Shown piece by piece: positions 7,135 to 53,692 of a DNA stretch of 64,000 nucleotides. The stretch spans positions 1 through 64,000 of the forward strand of contig NZ_JARUXC010000018.1 of the NCBI RefSeq assembly GCF_030433855.1, in the 5' to 3' direction. The notes beneath the pieces are model-generated. The model was not told where the DNA came from. It searched no databases and saw nothing but the letters and a program-made list of their open reading frames with translations. Origin of the DNA: Agreia sp. PsM10 (GTDB lineage: Bacteria > Actinomycetota > Actinomycetes > Actinomycetales > Microbacteriaceae). The position numbers and the translations under genes were made by a program. Every line of letters begins with the position of its first letter. Position 1 is the first letter of the stretch.

Positions 7135-8586
7135 CTACGTCGATACGGCTGCCGTCACGCTCAGGTTCGGTGCGGGCTGGTGAAAGACGTCTCGCAGGGC
7201 GGCCTTGGCCGCGAGCCATCCAGGCATGCCGTGCACGCCGGTGGCGGGGATCGTCGACGAGGATGCCAGATAGACGCGGGCAGCGGTGTCCTCCACGGGG
7301 TTCTGGTCGCGGTCGGCCGTTGTTGGGCGGCCAGTTGCGACGCCGGGGTCGCTTTTGACCCGACGATCAGCTCGCGGAAGCCCGGCGCGAGTCGTTCGAT
7401 CTGATGGATGACGTCGGCCGTGCAGTCCCGCGTCGACCCGTTGGGTACATGGATGGACGCCGACACGGTCTGCAGACGTGCGGGTGCCCTGCTCGCATCG
7501 AAAAGCGAGGGCTGGGTGAGCAGAACATACGGAGTCGGCGAATGACGGCCCCAGCTGATCTCTGCCTCCGAGTTCGCGATCTCCCGACGGCTGCCCCCTA
7601 TGTGCACGGTCGGGCTCAGCGCGACGCTCTCGTTCGTCCAGGGGATCGGCGCCGCGAGAACGAAGTCGACCTTGCAGACCCCACGGCCGTCGCTGAGCGT
7701 TCTCAGGCGACGTGAATACCCATCGGGCATCATGCCCGCGGTGATCGACGCGAGAGAGGTCGCCGACGTGGCGAAGATCTTGACCCCGAAGCCGTCGAGC
7801 TCTGCGATATCGGCTATCACCACGCCCCGTTCTGCCTGCCCGCCATGGTCCACGAGATCGTCGGCCATCGCATCCGTGATCTTCTGCGACCCGCCCACGG
7901 GTATCGGCCAGCCCCGGCCGTGGGCGTAGCTGGCGAGAACCATGCCGACCGCTGCAGACGTGAGACCGGGAAGATCTGCGGCACTGTGGGCGGCGTCCCG
8001 TGAGCATGGCGGGCGCTACCTCGGCCCTGAACCGGGCGTTCCATGCCGATGTGCCCTGCTCGACCACGCGCGAGACCAGAGCTTTCGCAGCCAGCGGGTC
8101 ACGGGGCATCCTCACCAGCCCGCCACCCAACGACAGGTCGGCGATACCGCCCAGGCGTGCCAGCAGCGGTTCGAAGAGCCGTGTATAGGAGGGGCCATCG
8201 GCGCCGAGTGTGTCGGCAGTGCGCTGAATGTCTCGATACGCCAGGCCCACGCGGCCGTCCCACAGCGGATGCACGTAGGAGACCTCCGGTACGACGAACT
8301 CGACGCGTTTCTCGAGTTCGAACTGCCGAAAGAATTCGGAGACGTGTGCGGCGGGGTGCACGGTGGAGCCGACGTCGTGGAAGGCTCCGTCGACGATGAG
8401 TTCGGACGTGCGGGCGCCACCGCCCAGAGTGGCGGCGGACTCGAAGACGGTCACGGGGATGCCTGCGCGAGCGATCGTGACGGCGGCCGCGAGACCGTTG
8501 GGGCCGGATCCGATCACGGCGACGGGGGAGTCGGCCTTCGAGGCACGGCTCACACGACGGCTCAGATGAGTCCGTGGCAGGTTCAT
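7135..8586 (-). pseudogene. Phytoene-desaturase-type FAD oxidoreductase, broken
   Basis: The N-terminal third is a clean FAD-binding amine-oxidase/phytoene-desaturase fold: AVIGSGPNGLAAAVTIARAG, then ESAATLGGGARTSEL and DVGSTVHPAAH. Around 7987-7992 the frame slips by one base, after which LASYAHGRGWPIPVGGSQ and VLLTQPSLFDASRAP are read in another frame. Around 7270-7285 it slips back to give VYLASSSTIPATGVHGMPG, the C-terminal FAD motif. Between SQLAA and RPTATRTPW the usual GGD-I-containing segment of about 20 residues is missing, so there is an internal deletion as well. Relatives of this all-trans-retinol/phytoene desaturase class act on polyunsaturated lipids, but the substrate here is unknown. 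The start may be 8598 instead. It is probably inactive. Confidence 0.75.
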
Positions 8587-8647
8587 CTCTGCATACACCG
8601 CCCCACGCCCCCGAATCCCTTAAAGAACAGTATGGCGCAAAAGCGTC

Positions 8648-9160
8648 CTACTGATCTCTTCTCTCGTCGTCCAATTCCGCAAAAAACTGTTCAGTGTTGG
8701 CGGAAATCTGCTGAGAGATCAGAGGCGCGGATCGTGAGCGCGAACGCTCGAAGATCAAGATGGCCAGTCCGATCAGGGTTCCCAGGACAGCGCCGATCGA
8801 GTTCGCCAGAATGTCGACCGGAGACGACACCCGATCGGCCAGCAAGGCTCCTTGGATGAGTTCAACCTCCGCGCTTGCGAGGAGAAGGATCGGTATCGCG
8901 GTCCAGAACCAGCGCAGACCCGCGATGAGCGAGAGAAACGTTCCCAGAGGGACGAACACGATCACGTTGCTGACCCTCTCGATTGCACGGAAATCAAGCC
9001 ATGCGATCTTCGGGTGTTCGCTCGTCCAGTCGGTGAACGCATCCAAGGCGAACCTGACGAAATGGTCGATCGAAATGGGGCTGAACACGATCATGGATAC
9101 CCACGTGCCGTACAGGCAGAGCAAGAGAATCGATGGTGCACGATAGGCGCTTGCGCTCAT
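8648..9160 (-). CDS. VanZ-like membrane protein
   Basis: A 170-residue protein with the VanZ-like arrangement of about four membrane helices: LLLCLYGTWVSMIVFSP, VSNVIVFVPLGTFLSLI, AIPILLLASAEVELIQ and SIGAVLGTLIGLAILIF. The conserved SNV...FVPLG, SAEVELIQ and RVSSPVDILANSIGA motifs of the family are present. The start overlaps the stop of the upstream glycosyltransferase by 4 nt. VanZ-like proteins are common in surface-polysaccharide operons of Gram-positive bacteria and contribute to resistance to some lipoglycopeptides, but their biochemical activity is not established. Last intact gene of the 12822-8648 operon. Confidence 0.8.
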   Translation of the reverse strand: MSASAYRAPSILLLCLYGTWVSMIVFSPISIDHFVRFALDAFTDWTSEHPKIAWLDFRAIERVSNVIVFVPLGTFLSLIAGLRWFWTAIPILLLASAEVELIQGALLADRVSSPVDILANSIGAVLGTLIGLAILIFERSRSRSAPLISQQISANTEQFFAELDDERRDQ

Positions 9161-10137
9161 CGAATGAGATCCCGAACAGCTTCAACTCGCCCGTTGGGGG
9201 AGTGACGCGCGTAGTCGCCGTTGCGTAGTAGGCCGACTATTGCCGCCAAGCGAGGAACGAAACTCCGGGGCAGACGGGCGCGCCGCTCCTCGAATGCAAG
9301 GCGTGCGAGCGTTCTCAGAACGAGCTGCTCGTCTGCGTTGGACGTGGCCGCACGATGTGCCAAGAGAGTCGTGAATCGTCGAACGTTCCGGTTCGCGGTC
9401 GATTCCCCTGATTTTAAGAGTCGCCGAAGTCTCGCACTTCGCCGACTCGAGCCGGCGCCCAGCACGTTCTTGTCGTGTTGTCGATAACTCACGACAGGTT
9501 GCGGAAGGATACGAAGGCTTGCGCTCGCGGCAGCGTTGACGACGAGCCAATAGTCGTGGGGCCACGCATCGCCAATGGGGAGATGCGATCGTAAGAACGT
9601 GGCTCGAGCAAGCAGTGACATGCCTGGGATGACACTCCGTCGGATCGCGGAAAGGTAAGCGTCGCGACCATTCAGCTCCGCTATCTCAGCGGCGGATACT
9701 CCCATGGATTCGAAAAGTGTGCGTCCCAACGGCTGACCGTCCGGTCCGATGAGGATCGCGTCCGACGCCACCAGATCGGCTTTCCCATCGCGAGTCAAGA
9801 GATCTACCGCTGATTTGATGCGGTCGGGATCCCAGACGTCGTCTTGGTCGGAGAGCGCGACGTAGTCGCCCGTCGCGGCGGCCAATGACCGCTCGAAGTT
9901 CCGAGTGAAGCCGAGAGGATCTTGATGTGCCTCGAGAACGACTACCCGGAGCATCCGGTGGTCGGCGATTGTGTGCGCGGCGATGACGCGCTGAGCGATC
10001 TCGACGGTGGAATCCGTTGAGCCGTCATCTGCCCAGACAAGCTCGTCGGGAGGGAGTGTCTGCGCGAAAATCGAGTCGAGCTGCGCCTCGATATAGTCCG
10101 CCCCGTTATACGTGCACAGGGCGACGGACACCGTCAT
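9157..10137 (-). CDS. GT2 family glycosyltransferase
   Basis: A 326-residue GT-A enzyme. The N-terminal domain shows SVALCTYNGADYIEAQLDSI, the nucleotide-binding ADDGSTDST, and a metal-binding DXD-type ALSDQDDVWDPDRI. Similarity to rhamnosyl/galactofuranosyl-type transferases is suggested by QDDVW and the later RQHDKNVLGAG, but the sugar cannot be fixed. It has no membrane helices, so it acts at the inner face of the membrane on a lipid-linked acceptor. It overlaps both the flippase gene upstream and the vanZ-like gene downstream by ATGA, placing it in the middle of a five-gene operon. Confidence 0.85.
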   Translation of the reverse strand: MTVSVALCTYNGADYIEAQLDSIFAQTLPPDELVWADDGSTDSTVEIAQRVIAAHTIADHRMLRVVVLEAHQDPLGFTRNFERSLAAATGDYVALSDQDDVWDPDRIKSAVDLLTRDGKADLVASDAILIGPDGQPLGRTLFESMGVSAAEIAELNGRDAYLSAIRRSVIPGMSLLARATFLRSHLPIGDAWPHDYWLVVNAAASASLRILPQPVVSYRQHDKNVLGAGSSRRSARLRRLLKSGESTANRNVRRFTTLLAHRAATSNADEQLVLRTLARLAFEERRARLPRSFVPRLAAIVGLLRNGDYARHSPNGRVEAVRDLIR

Positions 10138-41932: not shown

Positions 41933-42311
41933 CAGGACGTGGTCCTTCTTTCTTCACTGTGGGGATGCTGGCCGACGAGTCGACGGGCGCGACGAAGAGC
42001 TCCGTGTGCGGGCCAGTTCCGGCTCAGGGTCGGAGGTTCTGTCGAGCAGGGGGAGCGGGTCGCCGACGGGATCGGGTGCGGTCAGCGGGAGAGTGGTGCA
42101 GGAATCCTCACAGTATCCGCGGGCACGATCTGCACCGTTTCACCGATGTTTCGTGCTGGTAACAAAGTTGAAGGATCATCGCATCGGAAGGCCGATCGAG
42201 GCCCCGATGCGTCGCGAACGAGTCGAACCACGCCGGTCTGCACTCGGAGGTGCGGTCTCAGCGCCGCGCACATCAGCGTGTTCCGAGCGCGGACGCAAGT
42301 AGTCTGCTGCA
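41933..42311. promoter_or_regulatory. Divergent intergenic region
   Basis: 379 bp between the cohesin gene and the divergent gene at 42312. It holds AAGGA about 11 nt before the cohesin ATG. The stretch ctggtaacaaagttgaagga (about 42159-42178) is relatively AT-rich and may be part of a promoter. No small gene or strong hairpin was found. Confidence 0.4.
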
Positions 42312-42824
42312 ATGGAAGAGTCTCCCTCCGAGCAGGTGCGCCGGCTGGTGGCCCGCTCCATCGACTCGCTCGTGAGCCAGGGCGTACACGACGAGGCGCT
42401 CGGCGTGATGCGCGAGCCGCGCGGCTTCTCGGTGTTCAAGACCGCGCCGATGATCGCCCCGGCCGGCCGGGCATGGAGGCTCGGAGTTCTGCTCGTCGAC
42501 CGCGACGGCGGCGTCTACGAGACGGGCGACGTGACGCGGGCCATCGAACCGCTGCGCGCGGTCACGAACCGGTCGGCCGAGGCCGAGGCCAGACGCGACG
42601 ACCGCCGCGCCGCGGCGCGAGGAAAGTTCCCCGAGGGCGAGGTCGTGAACCATCGCTTCGTTCCGCTCGCCCTCGACGACGAGAGCCTGGATGCCGGCTC
42701 GGGCCCGTTGCAGGTTCGCGACGGCACGGTCGTCGTGCACTGGGACCTGTCGAGTCCCGGCCGCGGAGTCTCGACCCTCGACCGCTACCTCGCCGACCGC
42801 GTGAGCGTGCTCACGTTGGATTGA
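42312..42824 (+). CDS. Conserved hypothetical protein
   Basis: 170 residues. The N-terminal helix (EQVRRLVARSIDSLVSQGVHD) leads into FSVFKTAPMIAPAGRAWRLG and VLLVDRDGGVYETGDVTRAI, then an Arg-rich segment and FVPLALDDESLDAGSGPLQV, TVVVHWDLSSPGRGVS. It is soluble with no signal peptide. The pattern recalls uncharacterised actinobacterial proteins found near core genes. No catalytic motif is recognisable. It is monocistronic and convergent with the oxidoreductase gene ending at 42913. Confidence 0.65.
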   Translation: MEESPSEQVRRLVARSIDSLVSQGVHDEALGVMREPRGFSVFKTAPMIAPAGRAWRLGVLLVDRDGGVYETGDVTRAIEPLRAVTNRSAEAEARRDDRRAAARGKFPEGEVVNHRFVPLALDDESLDAGSGPLQVRDGTVVVHWDLSSPGRGVSTLDRYLADRVSVLTLD

Positions 42825-42912
42825 CACTTTCGGCACCGCGCACCTCGAGAGATGGCACTTCGGTTGGCCCGAAGCGTCATCTCAGCCGCGTGGAGTGCAC
42901 CGAAGCGTCAAC

Positions 42913-43896
42913 TCACCGCAGCGCCGCGCGGTCGAACCCGGCCGCCGTGTAGATCGCGTCGATGGCCTGCATCTGCGCCACGGAATCGGTGCCCTCGGTG
43001 AGCAGACGCTCGCCGCTCGCGAGCCCCTCGACCACGGCCGCGAGCTGGTGGTCGTAGGTCTCGAGCCCGGACACGGTGGAATTGCGGGAGATGCCGTCGC
43101 GGGTCTCGCTGATCGTGTGCCCCTTCGACGGGAACACGAGGTTGTCGACATGCAGGCTGCCGAGGGTGCCCACGACGTCGAGCGAGGAGTTCAGCTCCGC
43201 ACCCTCGACCATGCTGCAGGTCACGCGCGCCGAGGCGCCCGACGCGAACCGCAGCGACGCATCCATGCTGAGATCGGCACCCATCGAGTTGACCGTCGCC
43301 ATCGCATCCAGAACCTCTGGCTCGCTCGCCATCAACGCGCGCAGCTGGTGCAGCGGGTAGCACCCGAGATCCATGAGCGATCCGCCGCCCACTGCCGGGT
43401 CGTGGCGGATCGATGCCGGATCGAAGGGAATGGATGCGGTGAAGTCGGCGTGTGCCGAGACGATCTCGCCGAGCCGCCCCGAGGCGACGATGCGGTCGAT
43501 CTCGGCGCTCAGCGGGTGGTAGCGGTCGTGGAAGGCCTCGATGAGGCGCAGGCCCGTGTCGGTGGCGGCCGTGGTCATGAGCTCGGCCTCGGCGGCCGAC
43601 ATGGCGAAGGGCTTCTCGCAGAGTACGTTCTTGCCCGACTCGAGGGCCGCGATCGACCAGCGGGAGTGCTCGGACGGGGGCAGGGCGTTGTAGATGAGGT
43701 CGATGTCGGGGTCGGCCAGCAGGCGCTCGTAGCCTCCGTAGGAGCGCGGGATCGCGTGGGCGGCCGCGTAGGCGTTCGCCGACGACTCGCTGCGGGATGC
43801 GACGGCCGCGATCTCGACGTCGTCGCGACGACGTGCGGGGGTGATGATGGCGTTCGGGGCGATGCCGGCCGCGCCGAGGATTCCGATTCTGAGCAT
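42913..43896 (-). CDS. Gfo/Idh/MocA family oxidoreductase
   Basis: 327 residues. The NAD(P)-binding half has RIGILGAAGIAPNAIITPAR, IPRSYGGYERLLADPDIDLI, YNALPPSEH and the family signature VLCEKPFAMSAAEAELM with its catalytic lysine. The C-terminal half contains VGGGSLMDLGCYPLHQLRAL, typical of the catalytic/sheet domain with the Asp-x3-Tyr-x3-His region. It oxidises or reduces a sugar, polyol or related compound; the substrate is not predictable. It is monocistronic; the next gene on this strand upstream ends at 43982 beyond a hairpin. Confidence 0.85.
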   Translation of the reverse strand: MLRIGILGAAGIAPNAIITPARRRDDVEIAAVASRSESSANAYAAAHAIPRSYGGYERLLADPDIDLIYNALPPSEHSRWSIAALESGKNVLCEKPFAMSAAEAELMTTAATDTGLRLIEAFHDRYHPLSAEIDRIVASGRLGEIVSAHADFTASIPFDPASIRHDPAVGGGSLMDLGCYPLHQLRALMASEPEVLDAMATVNSMGADLSMDASLRFASGASARVTCSMVEGAELNSSLDVVGTLGSLHVDNLVFPSKGHTISETRDGISRNSTVSGLETYDHQLAAVVEGLASGERLLTEGTDSVAQMQAIDAIYTAAGFDRAALR

Positions 43897-43926
43897 GACT
43901 CCAGCGTGTCATACAGCGAACGTCAT

Positions 43927-43973
43927 CGTTCCCTGAGCTTGTCGAAGAAGCCCTTCGACAGGCTCAGGGAACG
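43927..43973. terminator. Long inverted repeat, likely terminator
   Basis: Arms cgttccctgagcttgtcgaag (43927-43947) and its near-perfect complement at 43953-43973 (one G-T-type mismatch) with a 5-nt loop. The hairpin lies 8 bp after the stop of the diiron protein gene. This particular palindrome (tccctgagcctgtcgaag) is, to my knowledge, a common intergenic repeat in high-GC actinobacterial genomes. Confidence 0.7.
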
Positions 43974-43981
43974 GAAGGGCG

Positions 43982-44770
43982 TCAGACGCCGAGCGCGTTC
44001 AGGGAGTCGTCGACGATCGTGAGGCCCTCGAGGCCCGGCAGGCCGCTGATGGCGGTGTCGATCTTGCGCGCCGCCTTGCGTCCGTCTTCGCCGCCCATGA
44101 GGTGACCCATGACGTGCTTGACCTCGTTCTTCTCCATGATGCTGGAGCCGACGGGCGCCCAGAAGTTGCTCAGGGCGAAGCGCGCGAACTTCTGCGCCTT
44201 CGAGCTCTTCGCGAGTCGCTCGCGGGCCTGCGAGGTGTAGAAGGCCACGTGGCGCGCCTCCTGCTTGGCGATGCGCTTCAGCAGCTCGGCGAGCACCGGG
44301 TCTTCTTCGAGCGCGGCCATGCGGTTGTAGGCGGTGATCGCCGACCACTCGTTGGCGGCGCCCCAGGCCATGTGCACGGCCACGAAGTCGGCGCCGACGA
44401 CCTTGCCGATGACGGACTGCTTGATGGGGTCGAGCTTGTCGCGCCAGCCGAGCTTGAGGCGCTTGGCCTTGAGCTCGTCGAAGTCGACGTGGATTCCGTG
44501 GATGCCGAGGACGGTGGCGAGGGCCTCGCCGTGCCAGAACTCCTCGCGGTTCCACATGGTCATGAATGCGCCCATCTCGGCCTCTTTATGGGAGGGCGTG
44601 GTGAGCAGGTCACGGGTGTAGCAGACCGTGTGATATTCCACATCGGCCATGTACCGCAGGGTGCGCAGAGAGCCCTCGGGCAGAGGGTGTTCGCGGAACC
44701 GCTCGAGGTCGAGGTCGTCCCAGTTCACGCTCACCGAGGTGGCGGTGTATTTGTCTACGTCGAATGCCAT
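43982..44770 (-). CDS. Diiron ferritin-like desaturase/oxygenase
   Basis: 262 residues from ATG 44770. The complete diiron ligand set of acyl-ACP-desaturase-type four-helix proteins is visible: E45 (DVEYHT), E77 and H80 (EEFWH), E141 (ANEWSA), E171 and H174 (EARH). It is soluble with no signal peptide, and shorter than plant stearoyl-ACP desaturase. Enzymes of this fold use oxygen to desaturate or oxygenate acyl chains. It starts 14 nt after the acyl-reductase gene and so belongs to the same operon, with a degenerate paralogue at its head. In the ether-lipid reading of this locus it is the best candidate for a vinyl-ether-forming desaturase. This is inference. Confidence 0.8.
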   Translation of the reverse strand: MAFDVDKYTATSVSVNWDDLDLERFREHPLPEGSLRTLRYMADVEYHTVCYTRDLLTTPSHKEAEMGAFMTMWNREEFWHGEALATVLGIHGIHVDFDELKAKRLKLGWRDKLDPIKQSVIGKVVGADFVAVHMAWGAANEWSAITAYNRMAALEEDPVLAELLKRIAKQEARHVAFYTSQARERLAKSSKAQKFARFALSNFWAPVGSSIMEKNEVKHVMGHLMGGEDGRKAARKIDTAISGLPGLEGLTIVDDSLNALGV

Positions 44771-44784
44771 GGTGTGAGGAGAGT

Positions 44785-47073
44785 TTACTCTCCGGTTCCC
44801 TTCGCGAATTGCGGCAGAGCGGATGCGCCGCGGGCGCCGCGTTTCCAGTTGTGGATGCTCCATCTTCTTCGGAGCGCCTCACGCGAGAGATTGGTGTCGG
44901 GGTTGATCGCCGTGGGATTTCCGACGAGCTGCAGCCACACCAGGTCTGCGTGGCTGTCGCCGTAGCCGTACGACTTCGACAGGTCCATGCCGTGCGTCTC
45001 GGCATAGCGGCGCAGCCAGGCCGCCCGCGCCTCGTCGACCAGCGGCGGCTGGGCCAGGTAGCCGGTCAGGATTCCGTCGCGCTCGTGCATCGATCCGGCG
45101 ATGACGTCGTCGAAGAGCGAGGCGAGCGGCGACGCCAGGATGCCGATGGACCCGGTGACGAGAACGGTGCGGTGGCCGGCGGCGCGGTGCTCCTCGATGC
45201 GCGCGATGGCCGACGGCATCGTGTGCCGCAGCAGGGTCTCTCGGTATCCGCCCGACACGACCTTCTCGAGCCGTTTCGCCGGCATCCCGCTGTAGCGGCG
45301 CAGGAAGGCGCGGATGAACTCGCCACGGTCGCGGTGCTCGGCCTTGAGATAGCCCGGCAGAGACGTGAGCAGGCTTGCCACCTCGCTCGGCCAGGCCGCC
45401 TTGCGGAATCCGGCCGAGCGCACCCACAGGTACTGCTCGACGATGTTGGAGTCGACGACGGTGCCCTCGAAGTCGAAGACGGCGAGAACGTCACTGCGCT
45501 CGGGGAGCGCCTTGGCCACGCGCTCCGACGCGGCGGGCCGCAGCGAGAATGCGCGCGTGAGGGCCGTGATCGACGGGAAGTGCACCTTCTGCAGGTAGTC
45601 CTCCCAGTCGATCGCGGTCACGTCGAATCCGATGTCGTCGCGCAGCTCGGCGGGCAGGGAGTTGTGCAGCGCCCGGGTGTTGCGGTCGTCGAAGATGATC
45701 TCGGTCTGCACGTAGGCCCGGTACAACTCGACGAACGTGCGCAGGTTTTCGAGGTCGTCTTTGCGCTTGAGCGCCTTCTTCACGTGCACGCGGGTGCGTT
45801 CGGTCGAGGGGAGGCGTTCGAGCGCCCTCTCGAGCCGGGCGTTCCAGATCTCCTGATTGTGCAGCACCCGGTCGACCTTGCGGGTTCCGGGGAAGGTCCA
45901 GTACGGAACCTCGATGTGACCGTCGCTCTCATGCGGCAGCGGATTGGCCGTGAAGAACTCGTTCATGTTCGTGAACATGCGGTGGATCGGCAGCGGGTTC
46001 CGGGCGCCGGAGCTCACGTGATAGTACGCGGAGTCGACCTCGGACTCGGGCGTCGGCGGGGTGGCCGCGACGGCGAGGATGACGTTCACCACGTAGTCGA
46101 CGGGAATCACGTCGAGCACGGTGTCCGGCAGGGCGGGGAACTGCGTGAGGTTGCCGCGGGCATAGGCGAGCACGAGCGGGTCGGCCACCTTGAAGCCGTC
46201 GATCCAGCCGGGGTAGGGGTGCCGCAGTGCGCTCTCGATGATGGCGGGGCGCACGACCGACAGTCGGTGGCCGGTCTCGCGCCACAGCTCTTCGGCGGCG
46301 CGCTCGGCGAACGACTTTGTGAGCGTGTACACGTCTGTCCAGCCGAGGCTCTGCGCCCGGCTGCGCCCGTAGTCGACGAGACGCTCGCGCACCCACTCGA
46401 CGCGGCCGGTCTCTGCGGCGGTGGCGACCGCCTGCGGGCCCTCCTTGCCGTGGACGGCGCGCGCATCCGACATGAAGGTGCGCAGTGTCTCGGGTTGCCG
46501 CGACGCCATCTCGACCCGCACCCGCGCATCCCGGGCCGCGGTGAGCTCTGCGCGCCAGTCGACCTCGTGCTTCAGGCGCCCCTCGGGAACGATGCCCTTG
46601 CGCAGGCCGCCGACGTAGGCCGTCGAGACGTGCACCACGTGGGCGTCGCTGCCCGATTCGGCCAGTGCCGTGTACAGGGCGATGGCCCCGCCGAGGTTGG
46701 TCTCGAACGCCTGGTCGATGGGCGGGTCGAACGACACGGTGGATGCGCTGTGGATCACGACGTCGAGATCGTCGGGCAGAGCGGGCACGGTCGCGAGGTC
46801 GCCCTCGATCACCCGCAGTCGCTCGCGCACGGCGCGCTCGACCTCGGCCTCGCCGACGCGCTCGCGCCAGGGTCCGAACACCGGCTTGCGCAGCAGCGTG
46901 CGCAGGCGGTCTTCGGCCGTCGTGCTGCCCTTGGTGCGGATGAGCAGCGAGATCGTGGTGTCGGGGTGCGACGAGAGCAGCCTCTCGACGATGGCCTGGC
47001 CCACGAAGCCCGTGCCTCCCGTGATGAAGACGTGCGCGTTGCCGAGATCGCCGGTCACGGTCGCGCCGCTCAC
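44785..47073 (-). CDS. Fatty acyl reductase fused to HAD-IB phosphatase
   Basis: 762 residues from GTG 47073, overlapping the upstream stop by GTGA. Residues 1-410 form a fatty-acyl-CoA-reductase-type SDR: VFITGGTGFVGQAIVERLL, VIHSASTVSFDPP, the catalytic pair Y249 and K253 (YTLTK), VVRPAIIESALRHPYPGWI. Residues about 525-750 form a HAD-IB phosphatase: motif I VFDFEGTVVDSN (D534, with Glu at position 536 where Asp is usual), motif II TVLVTGSIG, motif IV YGYGDSHADLVWL. The first part should reduce an acyl-CoA to an aldehyde or alcohol with NADPH; the second may act on a phosphorylated lipid intermediate. The same operon holds two ferritin-like proteins. Confidence 0.85.
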   Translation of the reverse strand: MSGATVTGDLGNAHVFITGGTGFVGQAIVERLLSSHPDTTISLLIRTKGSTTAEDRLRTLLRKPVFGPWRERVGEAEVERAVRERLRVIEGDLATVPALPDDLDVVIHSASTVSFDPPIDQAFETNLGGAIALYTALAESGSDAHVVHVSTAYVGGLRKGIVPEGRLKHEVDWRAELTAARDARVRVEMASRQPETLRTFMSDARAVHGKEGPQAVATAAETGRVEWVRERLVDYGRSRAQSLGWTDVYTLTKSFAERAAEELWRETGHRLSVVRPAIIESALRHPYPGWIDGFKVADPLVLAYARGNLTQFPALPDTVLDVIPVDYVVNVILAVAATPPTPESEVDSAYYHVSSGARNPLPIHRMFTNMNEFFTANPLPHESDGHIEVPYWTFPGTRKVDRVLHNQEIWNARLERALERLPSTERTRVHVKKALKRKDDLENLRTFVELYRAYVQTEIIFDDRNTRALHNSLPAELRDDIGFDVTAIDWEDYLQKVHFPSITALTRAFSLRPAASERVAKALPERSDVLAVFDFEGTVVDSNIVEQYLWVRSAGFRKAAWPSEVASLLTSLPGYLKAEHRDRGEFIRAFLRRYSGMPAKRLEKVVSGGYRETLLRHTMPSAIARIEEHRAAGHRTVLVTGSIGILASPLASLFDDVIAGSMHERDGILTGYLAQPPLVDEARAAWLRRYAETHGMDLSKSYGYGDSHADLVWLQLVGNPTAINPDTNLSREALRRRWSIHNWKRGARGASALPQFAKGTGE

Positions 47074-47888
47074 GAGCGCAGCTTCCGGGCGACGGCGTCG
47101 CCGATCTGCGGGGTCAGGCCGGGAAGTTCTGCCACTCTGTTTCCGATCGTGGTTGCGCGCTGGAGTCCGTCGGCTCCGCCGAAGACGGTCTGTTCGAAGA
47201 AGGTGCGGTCTGAATCGGAGCGGTCGACGGCCCCGATCGGCCAGGCAGCGTGCGCGAGGTGATTCGCCGCCTGCCTGACGGTCTTGGGCGAGTCGGCCAG
47301 CCTGCGTCGCGCCTCTTCGCTGAAGAACGATTCGTGCCGGCTCTTGATAGCGCGGACCGTGTCGATCGTCGCGGTGAGCGTCGGGTGGCCGGCGAGGGCA
47401 TCCAGCCGTGCATATGCCGTGCCCATGACCCATTCGTCGATGAGGCCTGTCGTCATGTGCACGCCGGTGAGCGGAACACCCTGCCCCATGGCGAGGATGG
47501 CGCGCCGGATGGGCCCGCGGCGTTCGGCCGACTCCGACCGGTCGGAGCGCGGTGCGCCCTCGTCGCCGACCTGCGCGCCGGTGCTTCCGTTGGCCACGAG
47601 GATCTGGTCGATGGCATCGGCGATCCAGAACTTCTCGAAGGCCCAGGTGACGAGGAACGCCGTGACGCGGGCGTCTTTGTGGGTGGCGGTCACGAGCAGG
47701 TTGCGCAGCTGCTCCATCGTGGCGCTCTCGAGGCGACCGAGGTAGCGCAGCAGATGCACGGCATCGGCCGAGAGCTGCGCGCCGTCGTAGGCATCGAGCT
47801 GGAGCTCGGGACGGAGATTTCCGCGGGCGGTGCCGGCGAATGCCCGCACGTCGAACCGCGCACTCGAAGTTGCATCTGTGGATGTCAT
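47070..47888 (-). CDS. Ferritin-like paralogue lacking diiron ligands
   Basis: 272 residues, alignable along its length with the diiron protein at 43982-44770. THKDARVTAFLVTWAFEKFW here matches SHKEAEMGAFMTMWNREEFW there, and GLIDEWVMGTAYARLDAL matches AANEWSAITAYNRMAAL. Of the six ligands, E54, E152 and H185 remain. Those at E77, H80 and E171 of the active protein are K86, I89 and K182 here. A metal centre is thus unlikely, and a structural or regulatory partner of the active enzyme is plausible. First gene of the operon, with a 71-bp divergent promoter region. The middle 40 residues (GAQVGDEGAPRSDRSESAER) look disordered. Confidence 0.75.
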   Translation of the reverse strand: MTSTDATSSARFDVRAFAGTARGNLRPELQLDAYDGAQLSADAVHLLRYLGRLESATMEQLRNLLVTATHKDARVTAFLVTWAFEKFWIADAIDQILVANGSTGAQVGDEGAPRSDRSESAERRGPIRRAILAMGQGVPLTGVHMTTGLIDEWVMGTAYARLDALAGHPTLTATIDTVRAIKSRHESFFSEEARRRLADSPKTVRQAANHLAHAAWPIGAVDRSDSDRTFFEQTVFGGADGLQRATTIGNRVAELPGLTPQIGDAVARKLRS

Positions 47889-47959
47889 GAAAGCCCTGCC
47901 GACTGGTCGAAAACCCGCGTGCGTAAACGACGCCGTGAAGAGCAGACTAACCTAACCCC
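47889..47959. promoter_or_regulatory. Shared divergent promoter of the two lipid operons
   Basis: 71 bp separate the two divergent operons that make up the proposed ether-lipid locus. On the plus strand TAACCT lies 6 nt before ATG 47960, consistent with a leaderless start. The other strand has no clear SD either. Both operons could respond to one regulator here, though no obvious palindrome was found. Confidence 0.45.
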
Positions 47960-48736
47960 ATGGCTGTAGCTCTCGTTACGGGAGGAACGTCTGGCATCGG
48001 TGCTGCGTTCTCCCGCTCCCTCGCCGCGCAGGGATATGACCTCGTTCTCGTCGCTCGGAGCGTTCCGCGACTGGAGGAGATGGCCGCAGACATCCGCGCC
48101 CTCGGCCGCTCCGTGGAGATCCTGCCCGCCGACCTCGCAGATCGGGCCGACGTCGCGCGGGTCGCCGAGCGGCTCGAAGACGCCTCCCGGCCGATCGACA
48201 TGCTGGTGAACAACGCCGGGTTCGGGGTGCACACCTCGCTCATCGACTCCGACGTCTCGGCCCACGACAAGGCCTTCGAGGTCATGTGCCGTGCCGTGCT
48301 GGTGCTGTCCGGCGCCGCGGCGCGGGGGATGCTGCCCCGCGGCTCGGGCAAGATCGTCAACGTCTCGAGCACGGCCGGCTTCGTGACCATGGGCGCCTAC
48401 TCGGCGCTGAAGGCCTGGGTCACGTCGTTCAGCGAAGGACTCGCGGTCGAGCTGCGAGGCACGGGAATCGGCGTGACGGCGCTCTGCCCGGGCTGGGTGC
48501 ACACCGAGTTTCACGAGCGCGCCGGGATCAAGGCGTCGAGCATTCCAAACTTCTTGTGGCTCGACGCCGAACAACTTGTCACGGCATGCTTGCGCGACGT
48601 CGACCGGGGCAGGGTAATCTCCATACCGACTGTTCGGTACCGAACCCTCATCTGGTTGGCTCGCCACGCACCGAGGAGTGCGATACGCGCAGTCTCCGGG
48701 TCGATCTCATCGAGTCGAAAGAAGCCGGTCACCTAG
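47960..48736 (+). CDS. Short-chain dehydrogenase/reductase
   Basis: 258 residues, classical SDR: VALVTGGTSGIGAAFSRSLA (cofactor loop), ADLADRADV, LVNNAGFGVHTS and the catalytic S137, Y147 and K151 (VSSTAGFVTMGAYSALKAW), then CPGWVHTEFH. The C-terminus (VRYRTLIWLARHAPRSAIRA) is basic and hydrophobic and may contact the membrane. The next gene starts immediately after its stop, and an alkyl-DHAP-synthase-like gene follows. In that setting it could reduce an alkyl- or acyl-DHAP to the glycerol-3-phosphate form, the job that the SDR DHRS7B is credited with in animals. This is inference from context. Confidence 0.8.
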   Translation: MAVALVTGGTSGIGAAFSRSLAAQGYDLVLVARSVPRLEEMAADIRALGRSVEILPADLADRADVARVAERLEDASRPIDMLVNNAGFGVHTSLIDSDVSAHDKAFEVMCRAVLVLSGAAARGMLPRGSGKIVNVSSTAGFVTMGAYSALKAWVTSFSEGLAVELRGTGIGVTALCPGWVHTEFHERAGIKASSIPNFLWLDAEQLVTACLRDVDRGRVISIPTVRYRTLIWLARHAPRSAIRAVSGSISSSRKKPVT

Positions 48737-49486
48737 ATGGCTGCAGAAGAACCCGCCCCCTCGGGGCCCGCCAAGGTCGTTGCCGGCGTGCGCGACCGTT
48801 TCAACTCGCCCAGCGTCGCGGCCGCTCGCTTTCTCGTTCAGCGCGGGCTGCTCAAGCCCCTCATCTGGTCGCTCACCCGCGTCACGGTGATCGGTCGCGA
48901 GAAGCTCAAGGACCTGTCGGGGGGCTTCGTCGTCGTCGCCAACCATTCCAGCCATCTGGATGCCCCGCTGATCGTCGGCTCCTTGCCCCGCCGGCTTGCG
49001 CGGTACCTGGCCACGGGTGCGGCCGCCGACTATTTTTTCGCCGTCTGGTGGCGGCGCGGCCTCACCGCACTCTTCTTCAACGCGTTCCCGGTGAAGCGCA
49101 TGGAGTCGAAGGCCAAGTCGATGAGCGCCCGGTCTCTGCTGTCGCGGGGCATCCCCATCCTCATCTTCCCCGAGGGCACCCGGTCGAAAGACGGCGAGGT
49201 CGGCACCTTCAAGCCCGGCGCCGCCGCGCTCGCGGCTTCCTGTGACGTGCCCACGATTCCCATGGCGCTCATCGGCGCCCACGTCGCACACCCGCGTGGC
49301 GCCAACTGGCCCCGTCGAGGGCGGTACCCGGTCGGCGTCGTCTTCGGCGAACCGCTGAGGCCCGTCGCAGGCGAGACCCCCGGTCATTTCGCCGAGCGCA
49401 CGAAACAAGAGATCCTGCGCCTGCGCGACCTTCATTCGGCCACTATCCTTGGCCAGTCCCCCCGATCAAGAGGAGCCCTCAAGTGA
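48737..49486 (+). CDS. PlsC-type 1-acyl-glycerophosphate acyltransferase
   Basis: 249 residues. Acyltransferase motif I is NHSSHLD (H70 with D75, the HX4D catalytic pair). Motif III-like FPEGTRSKDGEVGTFKPGAA binds the glycerol phosphate. An amphipathic hydrophobic stretch (YFFAVWWRRGLTALFFNAFP) lies between. It transfers an acyl chain to a glycerophosphate or DHAP acceptor at the membrane. No base separates it from the SDR stop, and GTGA couples it to the flavoenzyme gene. Together the three resemble the acyltransferase, reductase and alkyl-exchange steps of ether phospholipid synthesis. Confidence 0.85.
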   Translation: MAAEEPAPSGPAKVVAGVRDRFNSPSVAAARFLVQRGLLKPLIWSLTRVTVIGREKLKDLSGGFVVVANHSSHLDAPLIVGSLPRRLARYLATGAAADYFFAVWWRRGLTALFFNAFPVKRMESKAKSMSARSLLSRGIPILIFPEGTRSKDGEVGTFKPGAAALAASCDVPTIPMALIGAHVAHPRGANWPRRGRYPVGVVFGEPLRPVAGETPGHFAERTKQEILRLRDLHSATILGQSPRSRGALK

Positions 49487-51150
49487 GCGATGTCAAGCAC
49501 ATGAAATGGTGGGGCTGGGGCGTCGACGGCGTCGCATTCCACCACGAGAACAAGCCGGGCTTCGCCCCCTTCGTGAAGAAGAACCTGGGGCTCGACCTCA
49601 CCAAGACCAAGGGCGAGCCGCCGACATTCGACGACATCGACGTCCCCTCCAGCCGTGCGGCTGAGTCCTTCGTCCTGCTCCTCGCCGGAATCGTCGGGGA
49701 TGACCACGTCGAGACCGACGACATGTCGCGGGTCGTGCACACCTTCGGCAAGAGCATCCGCGACCTCATCCGCGTTCGCACCAGCGCGTTCCCTCGCGCC
49801 GTCGACGTGGTCGTCTATCCGGCCAACGAGGCCGAGGTGCGTCTGATCGTCGACGCGGTCGTCGCTGCCGACGCCGTGCTCATTCCGTTCGGCGGCGGCA
49901 GCAACATCGCCGGCAGCCTCGAGCCCCTCGCGGGCGAGCAGCGCACCGTGGTGTCGCTCGACCTCGGCCGGCTCAACCGCGTCATCGAGGTCGACGCCGA
50001 CTCGAGCCTCGCACGCATCCAGGGCGGCGCCCAGGGCCCCGACCTCGAGGCCGAGCTGAACGCGGCCGGCTGGACCTTGGGGCACTTCCCCGACAGCTTC
50101 ACCCACTCCACAGTCGGCGGCTGGGTGGCCACGCGCTCCTCCGGCATGCAGAGCGACAAGTTCGGCGACATCGCCGACATCGCGAAGGGTCTGCGTGTCG
50201 TCCGCCCCGGCGGCGTGCTCGTTCTGCGCCCGCTGCCCAGCACCTCGACCGGACCCAGCGTGCGCGAGATGATCCTCGGCAGCGAGGGGCGCCTCGGTGT
50301 CATCACCGAGGTCACCGTGCAGATCCACCGCATCCCGGCCAAGCGCGAGATCCTCGCCTACCTCTACCCCACGTGGGACGCCGGACTCGCGGCCATGCGC
50401 GAGATCTCCGAGAGCGACGCCACGCCGTCGATCACCCGCGTCTCCGACGGCAACGAGACGCTGTTCTCGTTCGCCACGTCGAAGAAGAGCAAGGGCTTCT
50501 CCGCCCTCGCCACCAAGGGCCTCGGCGTCTTCCTCAAGGCCAAGGGCTGGGACACCGAGAAGATGTGCCTGTCGTTCGTCGGCAACGAGGGCGGCGAAGA
50601 ACTGGTCGCGACGAACCAGAAGATCATCGCCGGCATCGTGAAGAAGCACGGCGGCATCACGGTGGGCAAAGGCCCCGGCGTGCTCTACGACCAGAAGAAG
50701 TTCGACACCCCGTACATCCGTGACTGGTTCCTCGACTGGGGAGGCTCTGCAGACGTCTCCGAGACCGCGGCGCCCTGGGCCAAGCTGCCCGAGCTCTACC
50801 GCAACGTGATCGCCAGCGCCAACCACGCGTTCGACGAGATCGGTGTGAAGGGCTGGATCATGGCCCACCTGTCGCACTCCTACACGTCGGGCGCGTGCCT
50901 CTACTTCACCTTCGCCTACCTCGACACGGGCGACGCGATCACCAACTACGACGTGGTCAAGGGTGCTATCCAACAGGCCTTCATCGACGCGGGCGGAACG
51001 CTGTCGCACCACCACGGAGTGGGCCTCGAGCACGCCCCGTGGATGGAGCAGGACATCTCGACCGAGGGCGTCAAGATCATGCGCGGACTGTTCGGCTCGG
51101 CCGACCCCGGTCGTCACTTCAACCCGGGCAAGGTTCTGCTCGACGAATGA
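49483..51150 (+). CDS. Alkyldihydroxyacetonephosphate synthase-like flavoenzyme
   Basis: 555 residues from GTG 49483. The N-terminus MKWWGWGVDGVAFH and AGPS-typical spacing precede the FAD-binding domain: VLIPFGGGSNIAGSLEP, then FTHSTVGGWVATRSSGMQSD and KFGDIADIAKGLRVV. The C-terminal domain ends with the active-site SHHHGVGLEH. These features match alkylglycerone-phosphate synthase, which swaps the acyl group of acyl-DHAP for a fatty alcohol to create an ether bond; related FAD-linked oxidases include D-lactate dehydrogenase but lack the HHH motif in this context. A fatty acyl reductase encoded in the divergent operon could supply the alcohol. Confidence 0.85.
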   Translation: MSDVKHMKWWGWGVDGVAFHHENKPGFAPFVKKNLGLDLTKTKGEPPTFDDIDVPSSRAAESFVLLLAGIVGDDHVETDDMSRVVHTFGKSIRDLIRVRTSAFPRAVDVVVYPANEAEVRLIVDAVVAADAVLIPFGGGSNIAGSLEPLAGEQRTVVSLDLGRLNRVIEVDADSSLARIQGGAQGPDLEAELNAAGWTLGHFPDSFTHSTVGGWVATRSSGMQSDKFGDIADIAKGLRVVRPGGVLVLRPLPSTSTGPSVREMILGSEGRLGVITEVTVQIHRIPAKREILAYLYPTWDAGLAAMREISESDATPSITRVSDGNETLFSFATSKKSKGFSALATKGLGVFLKAKGWDTEKMCLSFVGNEGGEELVATNQKIIAGIVKKHGGITVGKGPGVLYDQKKFDTPYIRDWFLDWGGSADVSETAAPWAKLPELYRNVIASANHAFDEIGVKGWIMAHLSHSYTSGACLYFTFAYLDTGDAITNYDVVKGAIQQAFIDAGGTLSHHHGVGLEHAPWMEQDISTEGVKIMRGLFGSADPGRHFNPGKVLLDE

Positions 51151-52022
51151 GCCGCGCCCGTCTCGGCGGGCCCGTCGGTGCGGCGGGTCTCGTCGTCGCC
51201 GGGCTGGCATGCCAGGAGGTCGGCGCGGCCTTCGCCGTGCTGCTCTTCCCGAGCGTCGGCGCGCTCGGCATGGTGGCACTTCGCCTCACCTTCTCCGCCG
51301 TGATCCTGCTCGCCATCGCGCGCCCGTCGGTACGCGGCCGCAGCCGCGGCGACTGGATGACGGTGGTGCTGTTCGGCGTGGCCCTCGCGGTGATGAACGG
51401 CTTGTTCTACGAGGCGCTGGCGCGCATTCCGCTGGGCGCCGCGGTGACCATCGAGGTGCTCGGGCCGCTGATCCTGTCGGTGGCCACGAGCCGGCGCGCA
51501 TCCAGCTGGCTCTGGGCCGTGCTGGCATTCGTCGGCGTCTTCCTGCTGGGGCAGGGCAGCTTCGGAGAGCTCGACCCCGTGGGCGTGCTGTTCGCCGCCG
51601 GTGCCGGAGCGACCTGGGCCGGCTACATCGTGCTGTCGTCGCGCACGGGCAGCCGCTTCGCCCGACTCGACGGGCTCGCGCTCGCCATGGCGATCGGAGC
51701 CGTTCTCACGCTGCCGCTGGGGCTCGCCGCAGCGGGCCCCGCGATCGTGCGCCCCGACATCCTGCTTCTGGGGGCGGCCGTCGCCGTGCTGTCGTCGACG
51801 ATCCCGTACGCCCTCGAGCTGTTCGCGCTGCGTCGCATCCCCTCGTCGACCTTCGCCATTCTCATGAGTCTCGCACCCGCGATCGCCGCACTCGCCGGAG
51901 TCGTTCTGCTGGCGCAGCACATCTCGATCGTGGGAATGCTCGCGATCGCCCTCGTGGTTATAGCCAGCATCGGGGCCGTGCGCAGCGCGCGACCACCCGC
52001 ACCCGCACCACCACCACTGTGA
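51147..52022 (+). CDS. EamA/DMT-family transporter
   Basis: 291 residues with ten predicted helices in two EamA repeats: [20 protein letters not shown] and [13 protein letters not shown] in the first, [33 protein letters not shown] and [19 protein letters not shown] in the second. It resembles the RhtA/threonine-homoserine exporter branch. It overlaps the flavoenzyme gene by ATGA, so it is the last gene of the plus-strand operon. Its link to lipid synthesis is unclear; a lysophospholipid or amine substrate would be a guess. Confidence 0.8.
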
Positions 52023-52032
52023 AGGATTGATC

Positions 52033-52476
52033 ATGCCATTGACCGGAGAATACGAACCGAGCACGTCCGACTGGGCACGCGAGCAGGTCGAGGAGTACGA
52101 GGCCTCGGGCGGAACGAGCGGCACGACGCTGCGCGGCATGCCGGTGATCGTGCTCACCTCGGTCGGCGCGAAGTCGGGCAAGCTGCGCAAGACCCCGCTG
52201 ATGCGCGTCGAGCACGAGGGCGAGTACGCCGTCGTCGCGTCTCTCGGCGGTGCGCCCAAGCACCCGGTCTGGTACTTCAACCTGCTGGCCGAGCCGCACG
52301 TCGAACTGCAGGACGGCCCGCAGAAGAACGACTACACGGCCCGCGAGGTGACCGGTGACGAGAAGGCGCTCTGGTGGGAACGGGCCGTGGCCGCGTATCC
52401 CGACTACGCCGACTACCAGGTCAAGACCGAGCGCGAGATTCCCCTGTTCGTTCTGACGCCTCGGCAGCCGGAGTAG
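52033..52476 (+). CDS. Deazaflavin (F420)-dependent nitroreductase-family protein
   Basis: 147 residues from ATG 52033 (AAGGA 7 nt upstream). It follows the Ddn/DUF385 pattern: [64 protein letters not shown]-like [10 protein letters not shown] and [17 protein letters not shown]. Members bind F420 and reduce quinones, nitro compounds or unsaturated lipids. It lies 10 bp after the transporter gene, possibly in the same transcript. Its 3' end overlaps that of the convergent MFS gene by 56 bp. Confidence 0.85.
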
Positions 52477-53692
52477 GCTCCCGGCCTCCTGTGAGGCCGA
52501 CGACGGCACCGGCGACGCCCGTGACGATCGCGCCGGCAGCGGTCACCGTGAGGCCCGAGAACGCTGTGCCGGCGTCGATCAGGGCGCCGGCCACCGCCGA
52601 GCCCACGGTCACGCCCACGGCGAGGCCGACCGACGGCCACGACAGCGCCTCGGTGAGTCGACGACGGTCGACGCGCACCTCGATCAGTGAGATGCCCGAG
52701 ATGAGAACGGGCGTGGTCACCAGACCGGCGAGGAGGACCGCCACCGTGAGCGTTTCCAGGTCGCGGAGGAGCACGATCCAGGGGATCACGAGCGCGTAGG
52801 CGATGCCGGTGACCAGCACGCGGCGGCCCGCGGGCCACGACGCGCTGAGCGGGCCGAACGCGATTCCGGCGACGACGCTGCCCAGCGCCAGGACGGCGAG
52901 GATCAGGCCCGCGCTCGCAGGCTGCCCGGCGAACGACGAGACGCTGACGGCAGAGAGGTCGACGGACCCGAAGACGAGCCCGACCCCGAAGTACATCGGC
53001 AGAATTCCGATGACGACGCCGGGCAGACGCGCGCGGCGGCGTGCGGCGGACGTGCGCTGCGCGCCGGCATCCGGAATCACGGCGGCGGGCCGGGGAGCCG
53101 TCGAGCGCAGAAGCAGCAGCGCGACACCGCCCAGGATGCCCACGGCGATGCCCGTGGCGAAGCCGTAGACGGGGCCGAGCGTCGTTGCGAGCACGGTGAC
53201 CACGGGCGGCCCGATCACGAAGACCAGCTCGTCGTTCACGGACTCCAGGGCGAGCGCGGTGTGCCTCTGCGTGGGTTTCGTGAGGATCCCCGACCACCGC
53301 GCCCGGGCCAGCGAGCCCATGTCGATGGAGGTGAGGCCGACGAGGAAGGCCGCCACGAACCAGCTCCACCGTGGCGCTCCGACGAGCACGACCGTGCCGA
53401 GGGCGACCGCCGACAGCGTCGACGCGACGAGCCCGATCGGCAGCACGGCCAGCTGGCCCCGGGCGTCGACGGCGCGTGACCAGAGCGGGCCGCCAACGGC
53501 GATACCCACGATGATCGCGCCGGAGACCAGCCCGGCCAGCGCATAGCTCTGTGTCGCGCCTGCCACGAGGAGCACGGTCGCGATGCCGGCGGTCGAACGG
53601 GAGACGCGCCCGAACCATCCGGCGACGCTGAAGGCCACGGTTCCCGGGTTGGAGAGGATGTCGGCGTAGGAGCCCAGCAGTCGGATTGCCAT
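52421..53692 (-). CDS. MFS transporter
   Basis: 423 residues from ATG 53692, about 12 membrane helices. [20 protein letters not shown] opens the protein, and [20 protein letters not shown] shows the loop after helix 2. It resembles drug-efflux-type MFS proteins of actinobacteria that lack a clear substrate. A leader version from GTG 53758 is less likely because it has no hydrophobic character. It is convergent with the nitroreductase gene with overlapping 3' ends, so each could affect the other's transcript. Confidence 0.8.

What the first reader, a model, noticed from the sequence alone, without database searches (positions are those of the whole stretch)
43982..51150. Candidate aerobic ether-lipid/plasmalogen gene cluster
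Two divergent operons sharing 71 bp encode a fatty acyl reductase (with HAD phosphatase), a diiron desaturase-like protein, a ligand-depleted paralogue, an SDR, a PlsC acyltransferase and an alkyl-DHAP-synthase-like flavoenzyme with the HHHGVG and HSTVGGW motifs. Known animal ether lipid synthesis uses the same set: FAR1, a DHAP acyltransferase, AGPS, an acyl/alkyl-DHAP reductase and a diiron desaturase. Plasmalogen-derived dimethylacetals are recorded in several Microbacteriaceae, yet the anaerobic PlsA route would not suit oxygen-using cells. No membrane PEDS1/CarF-type desaturase is seen here, so the soluble diiron protein could be a different answer to vinyl-ether formation. Motifs are seen directly; the pathway is inference.
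Basis: partly seen in the sequence, partly recalled or inferred. Interest (0 to 1): 0.9.

Follow-up and report, generated by a model that had tools for sequence, protein, structure and literature searches.

The report
Aerobic ether-lipid (plasmalogen) gene cluster
A plant-associated bacterium carries a conserved six-gene set that looks like the animal route to ether lipids but with an unstudied soluble iron enzyme where animals use a membrane one, so it may show a second oxygen-using way to make plasmalogens.

Summary
The window lies in the genus Agreia (Microbacteriaceae). Two divergent operons, 71 bp apart, encode D2-FAR/HAD-D1 and SDR-PlsC-AGPS. The flavoenzyme is an AGPS-family protein: 390 and 279 bits against solved AGPS structures, 78 against glycolate oxidase; R419, R515, Y578 and H615-617 are kept; the tree separates it from GlcD-like paralogues. 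All six genes, in one order, occur in 61 of the 80 closest D1 loci. In 150 family genomes D1 (44), FAR (41) and AGPS (40) co-occur (D1+AGPS 38). In other families D1 is away from AGPS in 20 of 34 genomes yet still co-occurs. D1 has an invariant diiron ligand set and a fold like acyl-ACP desaturases and R2-like oxidases; D2 is ligand-depleted. Of 32 FAR-positive genomes without D1, 19 carry another diiron protein (D3). Dimethylacetals are published for Subtercola, Frigoribacterium faeni and Agreia, all carriers. Best reading: an aerobic DHAP-type ether-lipid pathway (strong), with D1/D2 as probable vinyl-ether desaturase (plausible, unproven). Against it: Agromyces, Humibacter and others carry D1/D2 without the rest, and papers report no dimethylacetals in Frondihabitans, Frigoribacterium endophyticum or Herbiconiux, which carry the cluster.

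The parts
43982..44770 (-). D1: soluble ferritin-like diiron protein, 262 aa; candidate vinyl-ether (delta-1') desaturase
   Evidence: E45, E77xxH80, E141, E171xxH174 invariant in 27 aligned sequences; PF03405 at 21.7 bits, just below cut-off 22.7; AlphaFold model from A2, pLDDT 87.5, pTM 0.86; best PDB folds acyl-ACP desaturase 7t63 and R2lox, E 2e-3, prob 1.00
44785..47073 (-). FAR/HAD: fatty acyl reductase fused to a HAD-IB phosphatase, about 762 aa
   Evidence: PF07993 127 bits, PF12710 112.9 bits, PF03015 (FAR C-terminal) 35.1 vs cut-off 35.4; GTG start read from sequence. Genome searches used 44785-47064, three residues shorter
47070..47888 (-). D2: ligand-depleted paralogue of D1, 272 aa; probable non-catalytic partner
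   Evidence: 29% identical to D1 over residues 3-248; K, I, K replace E77, H80, E171; no Pfam family
47889..47959 (.). 71-bp divergent intergenic region between the two operons
   Evidence: 69-183 bp in 61 loci
47960..48736 (+). SDR reductase, candidate alkyl-DHAP reductase
   Evidence: PF00106 153.5 bits; TGGTSGIG and YSALK read from sequence; specificity not determined
48737..49486 (+). PlsC-type acyltransferase, candidate DHAP acyltransferase
   Evidence: PF01553 82.1 bits; NHSSHLD and EGTR read from sequence
49483..51150 (+). AGPS-family flavoprotein, candidate alkyl-DHAP synthase, 555 aa
   Evidence: 2uuu 390 bits, 4bby 279 bits, glycolate oxidase 78 bits; catalytic residues and tree

Best explanation
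The cluster makes ether-linked glycerolipids in air by the route animals use. FAR reduces a branched acyl thioester to the fatty alcohol; PlsC acylates DHAP; the AGPS homologue swaps the acyl chain for the alcohol, giving 1-O-alkyl-DHAP; the SDR reduces it to alkyl-glycerol-3-phosphate. A D1/D2 complex, with one active diiron subunit and one inactive partner, then uses oxygen to introduce the 1',2' double bond, giving plasmalogens that appear as dimethylacetals in fatty-acid analyses. Shown here: gene content, AGPS-family membership with conserved catalytic residues, conserved gene order, genome-level co-occurrence, diiron ligands and predicted fold of D1. Inferred: every substrate, the order of steps, the D1/D2 complex, and that D1 makes the vinyl ether. 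The HAD domain's role is unassigned.
For: AGPS identity. Family sample of 150 genomes: D1 44, AGPS 40, FAR 41, D1+AGPS 38. Order sample of 297: D1 42, FAR 71, both 39. Close AGPS in 37 of 39 D1+FAR+ genomes (36, plus the window genome), in 25 of 32 FAR+D1- and in 0 of 48 examined of the 223 FAR-D1- genomes. Of 34 D1+AGPS+ genomes of other families, D1 and AGPS are unlinked in 20: 8 on one contig over 400 kb apart, 12 on different contigs (coordinates; count). D3, another protein with the same six ligands, in 19 of 32 FAR+D1- and 1 of 48 FAR-D1- genomes, beside FAR in G316 and G330. Dimethylacetals in Subtercola (S. lobariae about 21% of peak area, my sum from Table 2) and, at up to 4%, Agreia (PMC5945732 passages), and in F. 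faeni and strain D8 (PMC12823222 passages). Clusters in S. lobariae L166, F. faeni NBRC 103066T L140, A. bicolorata L089, A. pratensis L091, and Leaf186 L126, which has ANIb 96% to a sister strain of D8. Structure.
Against: D1/D2 occur without close FAR or AGPS in G025, G057, G079, G102, G142 and G382 (G142 has a distant AGPS). In named loci of Agromyces, Humibacter, two Leifsonia and Glaciibacter the pair stands without cluster genes in the DNA held. Eight such rows form one clade inside the cluster-linked D1s (98/86), so it looks like one derived event, but it shows D1/D2 may have another substrate. In the phylum sample distant D1s go with FAR (17 of 19) but AGPS only in 4 of 19, all distant. 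12 of 62 FAR+AGPS+ order genomes have neither D1 nor D3 at the cut-offs used. Chemistry: PMC5945732 says Frondihabitans lacks dimethylacetals although L136 and L150 carry the cluster, and its genus table gives none above 5% for Agreia; PMC12823222 says two other Frigoribacterium species lack the 14:0 2OH and dimethylacetal peaks, though F. endophyticum AS3.20 (L146) has the cluster; main-text passages for Herbiconiux species that carry it (L129, L131, L151) name none. Known plasmanyl desaturases are membrane proteins; soluble acyl-ACP-desaturase-type enzymes act on carrier-bound acyl chains (recalled). No Foldseek match reached E 0.001.
Confidence: 0.5

Rival explanations
1. The cluster makes alkyl ether lipids, but D1/D2 is a desaturase or hydroxylase acting on another bond (for example mid-chain desaturation or 2-hydroxylation of the acyl or alkyl chain); the vinyl ether is made by another enzyme.
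For: D1/D2 without FAR/AGPS. Nearest solved folds and weak sequence matches are acyl-ACP desaturases, including M. tuberculosis DesA2, and R2-like oxidases. 'C14:0 2OH' is reported in F. faeni. PlsA/PlsR orthologues exist in some Actinobacteria, Actinomycetales included (PMC9702350 passage), and I did not search this genome for them.
Against: Dimethylacetals are reported in cluster carriers and no CarF/PEDS1 family match was found in 150 family genomes (control silent). F. faeni's 14:0 2-OH may be a retention-time misnaming of anteiso-15:0 dimethylacetal (inference, untested).
Confidence: 0.32
2. The AGPS homologue and its neighbours make something other than membrane ether lipids, for example wax-type or aldehyde/alkane products from fatty alcohol, with D1 as an aldehyde-active diiron oxygenase.
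For: FAR plus a soluble diiron protein resembles cyanobacterial alkane synthesis (recalled). Distant D1s accompany FAR without close AGPS in the phylum sample.
Against: AGPS catalytic residues conserved; PlsC and SDR in one operon with AGPS in 61 of 80 loci; FAR and close AGPS co-occur in 40 genomes of the family sample; dimethylacetals in carriers.
Confidence: 0.1
3. D1/D2 is an oxygen-consuming or sensing accessory (R2lox- or ferritin-like) with no direct lipid substrate, coupled to the cluster for protection or regulation.
For: R2-like ligand-binding oxidases, whose role is unknown (recalled), are among the best fold matches.
Against: Tight association with FAR even when unlinked and apparent replacement by another diiron protein, D3, in FAR genomes.
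Confidence: 0.08

Closest known systems
Animal ether-lipid/plasmalogen pathway (FAR1, GNPAT, AGPS, alkyl-DHAP reductase, PEDS1/TMEM189)
   Same: Same set of reaction types (pathway from PMC9131029 passages); AGPS homologous with conserved catalytic residues; SDR and acyltransferase of the right kinds
   Different: Bacterial operons; FAR fused to a HAD phosphatase; a soluble diiron protein pair instead of the membrane PEDS1
Myxococcus xanthus elbA-E and MXAN_1676-1674 operons with CarF
   Same: AGPS homologue, FAR, acyltransferase, HAD protein and reductases for aerobic ether lipids (PMC9131029 passages)
   Different: M. xanthus uses the large multidomain ElbD and membrane CarF; the review says true CarF homologues beyond myxobacteria are reported only in Leptospira
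Soluble acyl-ACP desaturases (PF03405, e.g. 7t63, 1oq4, DesA2 1za0) and R2-like ligand-binding oxidases
   Same: Diiron helical-bundle fold and E..ExxH..E..ExxH ligands
   Different: D1 scores below the PF03405 cut-off (21.7 vs 22.7), 11-20% identity in the fold matches listed; has a ligand-less paralogue beside it
Anaerobic PlsA/PlsR plasmalogen route
   Same: Makes plasmalogens in bacteria
   Different: Converts diacyl lipids, mainly in anaerobes (PMC9702350 passages); not searched for in this genome

Membership tests
Alkyl-DHAP synthase (AGPS) | Catalytic residues R419, R515, Y578, H615-617 (guinea-pig numbering; roles recalled) | tested here: met
   All six conserved in the window protein; the two GlcD-like paralogues differ at 419, 578, 615 and 616 and share R515 and H617
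Alkyl-DHAP synthase (AGPS) | Groups with eukaryotic AGPS, not with D-lactate/glycolate oxidases | tested here: met
   Branch 100/100 separates the two GlcD-like rows from the 26 AGPS rows; long branches noted, and the exact join to the two eukaryotic rows is unresolved
Alkyl-DHAP synthase (AGPS) | Converts acyl-DHAP and fatty alcohol to alkyl-DHAP | not testable with these tools
   Needs enzyme assay
Fatty acyl reductase (FAR1-like) | NAD-binding male-sterility domain plus FAR C-terminal domain | tested here: inconclusive
   PF07993 127 bits vs 20.1 met; PF03015 35.1 vs 35.4, just below cut-off
Soluble acyl-ACP desaturase (PF03405) | Pfam gathering score | tested here: not met
   21.7 vs 22.7 bits
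Soluble acyl-ACP desaturase (PF03405) | Six-residue diiron ligand set and similar fold | tested here: met
   Ligands; fold (R2-like oxidases match equally well, so this does not single the family out)
PEDS1/CarF (PF10520) | Membrane Lipid_desat domain encoded in the genome | tested here: inconclusive
   0 of 150 family genomes, but the 14 control genomes were also silent
PlsA/PlsR anaerobic route | PlsA and PlsR orthologues | not tested
   Not searched
Plasmalogen pathway | Vinyl-ether lipids (dimethylacetals) in the organism | tested here: inconclusive
   Reported for Agreia at genus level (iso-15:0 DMA up to 4% in the text, none above 5% in the table; PMC5945732 passages); not measured for this strain

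The most novel reading that the evidence does not exclude
D1/D2 is a soluble diiron plasmanyl desaturase, unrelated to membrane PEDS1/CarF, and D3 is a second divergent solution in other families of the order: oxygen-dependent vinyl-ether formation would have arisen again on the acyl-ACP-desaturase fold, with an inactive partner subunit, explaining the long-recorded dimethylacetals of aerobic Microbacteriaceae.
Probability: 0.4. Interest if true: 0.86.

Novelty: new variant of a known kind. Interest (0 to 1): 0.7.

Why it matters
Plasmalogen-derived dimethylacetals in aerobic Microbacteriaceae are recorded as taxonomic markers; I found no pathway given for them in the passages and listings seen. 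The review passages read place CarF-type vinyl-ether synthesis in bacteria with myxobacteria and Leptospira. A compact six-gene cluster with defined homologues makes the question directly testable by gene removal and lipid analysis, and could give a soluble, easily purified enzyme for a reaction known from membrane proteins.

Tried and rejected
Rejected: the flavoenzyme as D-lactate or glycolate oxidase. A neighbour of the solitary D1/D2 pairs that would name another substrate: no lipid enzyme recurs in the 12 loci; the most frequent recurring neighbour (7 of 12) is a Na/H exchanger, and a LigD-type primase-polymerase recurs in 4. Around unlinked and distant D1s (20 regions) only window genes were recognised by BLAST; other ORFs there were not annotated. 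An operator in the 71-bp gap: a palindrome seen in some relatives is not in the window gap. RNA families at 42000-53000: none. Literature for a published cluster of this kind: the listings (4 of 4 papers; 20 of 30; 16 of 17; 15 of 22; 12 of 12; 12 of 133) showed none by title or abstract; the library holds open papers only. First structure job (single sequence) was poor, pLDDT 41.6; the alignment-based one succeeded.

Rows left out of counts: family sample, weak D1 hits G045, G099, G116, and G113 (D2-like hit only), and distant AGPS G017, G063, G064, G142 (292-327 bits). Order sample: 54 genomes matched D1 at E 0.001; 12 weak ones (E about 1e-3 to 1e-8) were counted as D1-negative. Phylum sample: 26 of 396 matched; 3 from the family and 4 weak ones (G453, G514, G663, G821) were dropped, leaving 19; FAR and AGPS were not searched in the D1-negative phylum genomes. 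In one search, AGPS hits below 390 bits (2 of 32, 4 of 48) counted as absent; its 48 FAR-D1- genomes were taken mostly in handle order from 223. D3 was not searched in D1-positive genomes. Fisher values ignore relatedness.

Full report
WHAT IS THERE. The window belongs to the genus Agreia: five loci named Agreia carry D1 at 98-99% identity. The neighbouring GFO/IDH gene is near D1 in the five Agreia loci; in other loci only weaker, more distant hits appear.

THE FLAVOENZYME IS AN AGPS HOMOLOGUE. Against solved structures it scores 390 bits with Dictyostelium AGPS and 279 with guinea-pig AGPS, against 78 for glycolate oxidase and 75 for D-lactate dehydrogenase. R419, R515, Y578 and H615-617 are kept. 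Two GlcD-like paralogues of the same genome, with GEHGVG or GEHGIG in place of HHHGVG, differ at four of these six sites and fall on the far side of a 100/100 branch. The tree has long branches and does not settle where exactly the eukaryotic rows join. Seven distant actinobacterial AGPS-like proteins (35-37% identical) also keep these residues, so the residues alone do not prove ether-lipid synthesis.

THE GENES TRAVEL TOGETHER. Of the 80 best loci kept by the D1 scan (402 relatives found), 61 hold all six genes in one order and orientation. Of the other 19, two miss only PlsC and two only AGPS at my cut-offs (each visible in part), 11 hold the D1/D2 pair alone and 4 hold D1 without D2, one of them (L158) at a contig end. 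In 150 family genomes D1 is in 44, AGPS in 40 and FAR in 41; D1 and AGPS share 38, AGPS and FAR share 40 (Fisher 9e-27 and 9e-36, relatedness ignored). Two genomes have AGPS and FAR without D1: G113, where the FAR match stops short, and G101, unexplained. In 297 genomes of the order, D1 is in 42, FAR in 71 and both in 39. Of 34 D1+ AGPS+ genomes of other families, D1 lies within 20 kb of AGPS in 14 and elsewhere in 20, of which 8 are over 400 kb away on one contig and 12 on another contig (coordinates; one search counts 16 and 20 with two family genomes included). So the association is not mere linkage. Close AGPS was found in 25 of 32 FAR+D1- genomes and in 0 of the 48 FAR-D1- genomes examined. 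FAR plus AGPS thus looks like the core and D1 an addition to it.

D1, D2 AND D3. In 27 sequences E45, E77, H80, E141, E171 and H174 of D1 are invariant. The model (73 sequences, pLDDT 87.5, pTM 0.86) matches soluble acyl-ACP desaturases and R2-like ligand-binding oxidases best (E 2e-3, prob 1.00, TM mostly 0.5-0.6; none at E 0.001 or better). By sequence D1 is just below the PF03405 cut-off. The eight D2 rows aligned, the window's included, have lost E77, H80 and E171. A third family, D3, keeps all six ligands in the three rows aligned, has no Pfam match, and occurs in 19 of 32 FAR+D1- genomes against 1 of 48 FAR-D1- genomes (Fisher 5e-9). It lies beside FAR in G316 and G330 but not in G266. 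So 58 of 71 FAR genomes have D1 or D3; 13 have neither at these cut-offs.

CHEMISTRY RECORD. PMC5945732 (passages) gives dimethylacetals for four Subtercola species, 7-17% iso-16:0 and 3-11% anteiso-15:0, and iso-15:0 up to 4% for Agreia (its table shows none above 5% there); it says Frondihabitans lacks them and has 14:0 2-OH. PMC12823222 (passages) gives 14:0 2OH and anteiso-15:0 aldehyde/dimethylacetal in strain D8 and F. faeni, not in the two other Frigoribacterium species. PMC7033078 (passages) lists 14:0 2-OH at 17.0% in F. faeni and 4.2% in Glaciihabitans tibetensis. I infer that 14:0 2-OH may be a misnamed dimethylacetal; this is untested. Clusters are in S. lobariae, F. faeni, A. bicolorata, A. 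pratensis and G. tibetensis, and also in Frondihabitans, F. endophyticum and Herbiconiux. Main-text searches for Herbiconiux, Lacisediminihabitans and one Salinibacterium show no dimethylacetal; supplements were not seen. PMC10713820 (passages) lists ordinary major fatty acids for Agromyces, a genus with D1/D2 only in the seven loci seen. I did not survey dimethylacetals in cluster-negative genera.

AGAINST THE PLASMALOGEN STEP. Six genomes have D1/D2 but no close FAR or AGPS. Eight solitary rows form one clade within the linked D1s (98/86); Jiangella and one MAG row lie elsewhere. This points to a single derived escape, but the pair must then do something without this pathway, or use ether lipids from outside. 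In the phylum sample, 19 genomes with more distant D1 relatives (31-45% identical) have FAR in 17 and AGPS in only 4, all distant; I have no FAR background for the rest of that sample.

VERDICT. An aerobic DHAP-type ether-lipid cluster is likely (my estimate 0.85). That D1/D2 forms the vinyl ether is about 0.45-0.5. A soluble diiron plasmanyl desaturase would be new; the listings showed no report of it. In PMC9131029 (passages) true CarF beyond myxobacteria is reported only for Leptospira. PMC11868695 (passages) surveys AGPS and ElbD homologues across bacterial phyla and warns, for ElbD, that a homologue need not mean ether lipids.

Noticed in passing
L166:7596-9859, L123 about 7690-9990: Subtercola and Labedella have about 2.4 kb more between FAR and D1; in Subtercola L166 this is a lactate-racemase-N-like protein (PF09861) and a second PlsC-type acyltransferase, and Labedella ORFs look alike by eye.
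   Followed up: partly
intergenic D2/SDR of L118, L121, L131, L145: A palindrome-like TACGCTACGG...CGTAGCG lies in the divergent gap of several relatives, a possible operator; not in the window's gap.
   Followed up: partly
44785-47073: The HAD domain's nucleophile motif reads DFEGT (DxE), and DLEGT in L166, instead of the usual DxD (usual form recalled).
   Followed up: no
L208:777-1733, L209:1756-2628, L212:5103-6062: D3, a diiron-type protein without a Pfam family, accompanies FAR in many genomes without D1.
   Followed up: partly
L104 and L107 (one MAG, RYN_67): Two D1 copies in one MAG, one in the full cluster and one alone.
   Followed up: no
G193, G160, G264 and other f12 genomes: The FAR/HAD match holds one stop in these genomes, suggesting separate FAR and HAD genes where the window has a fusion.
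   Followed up: no
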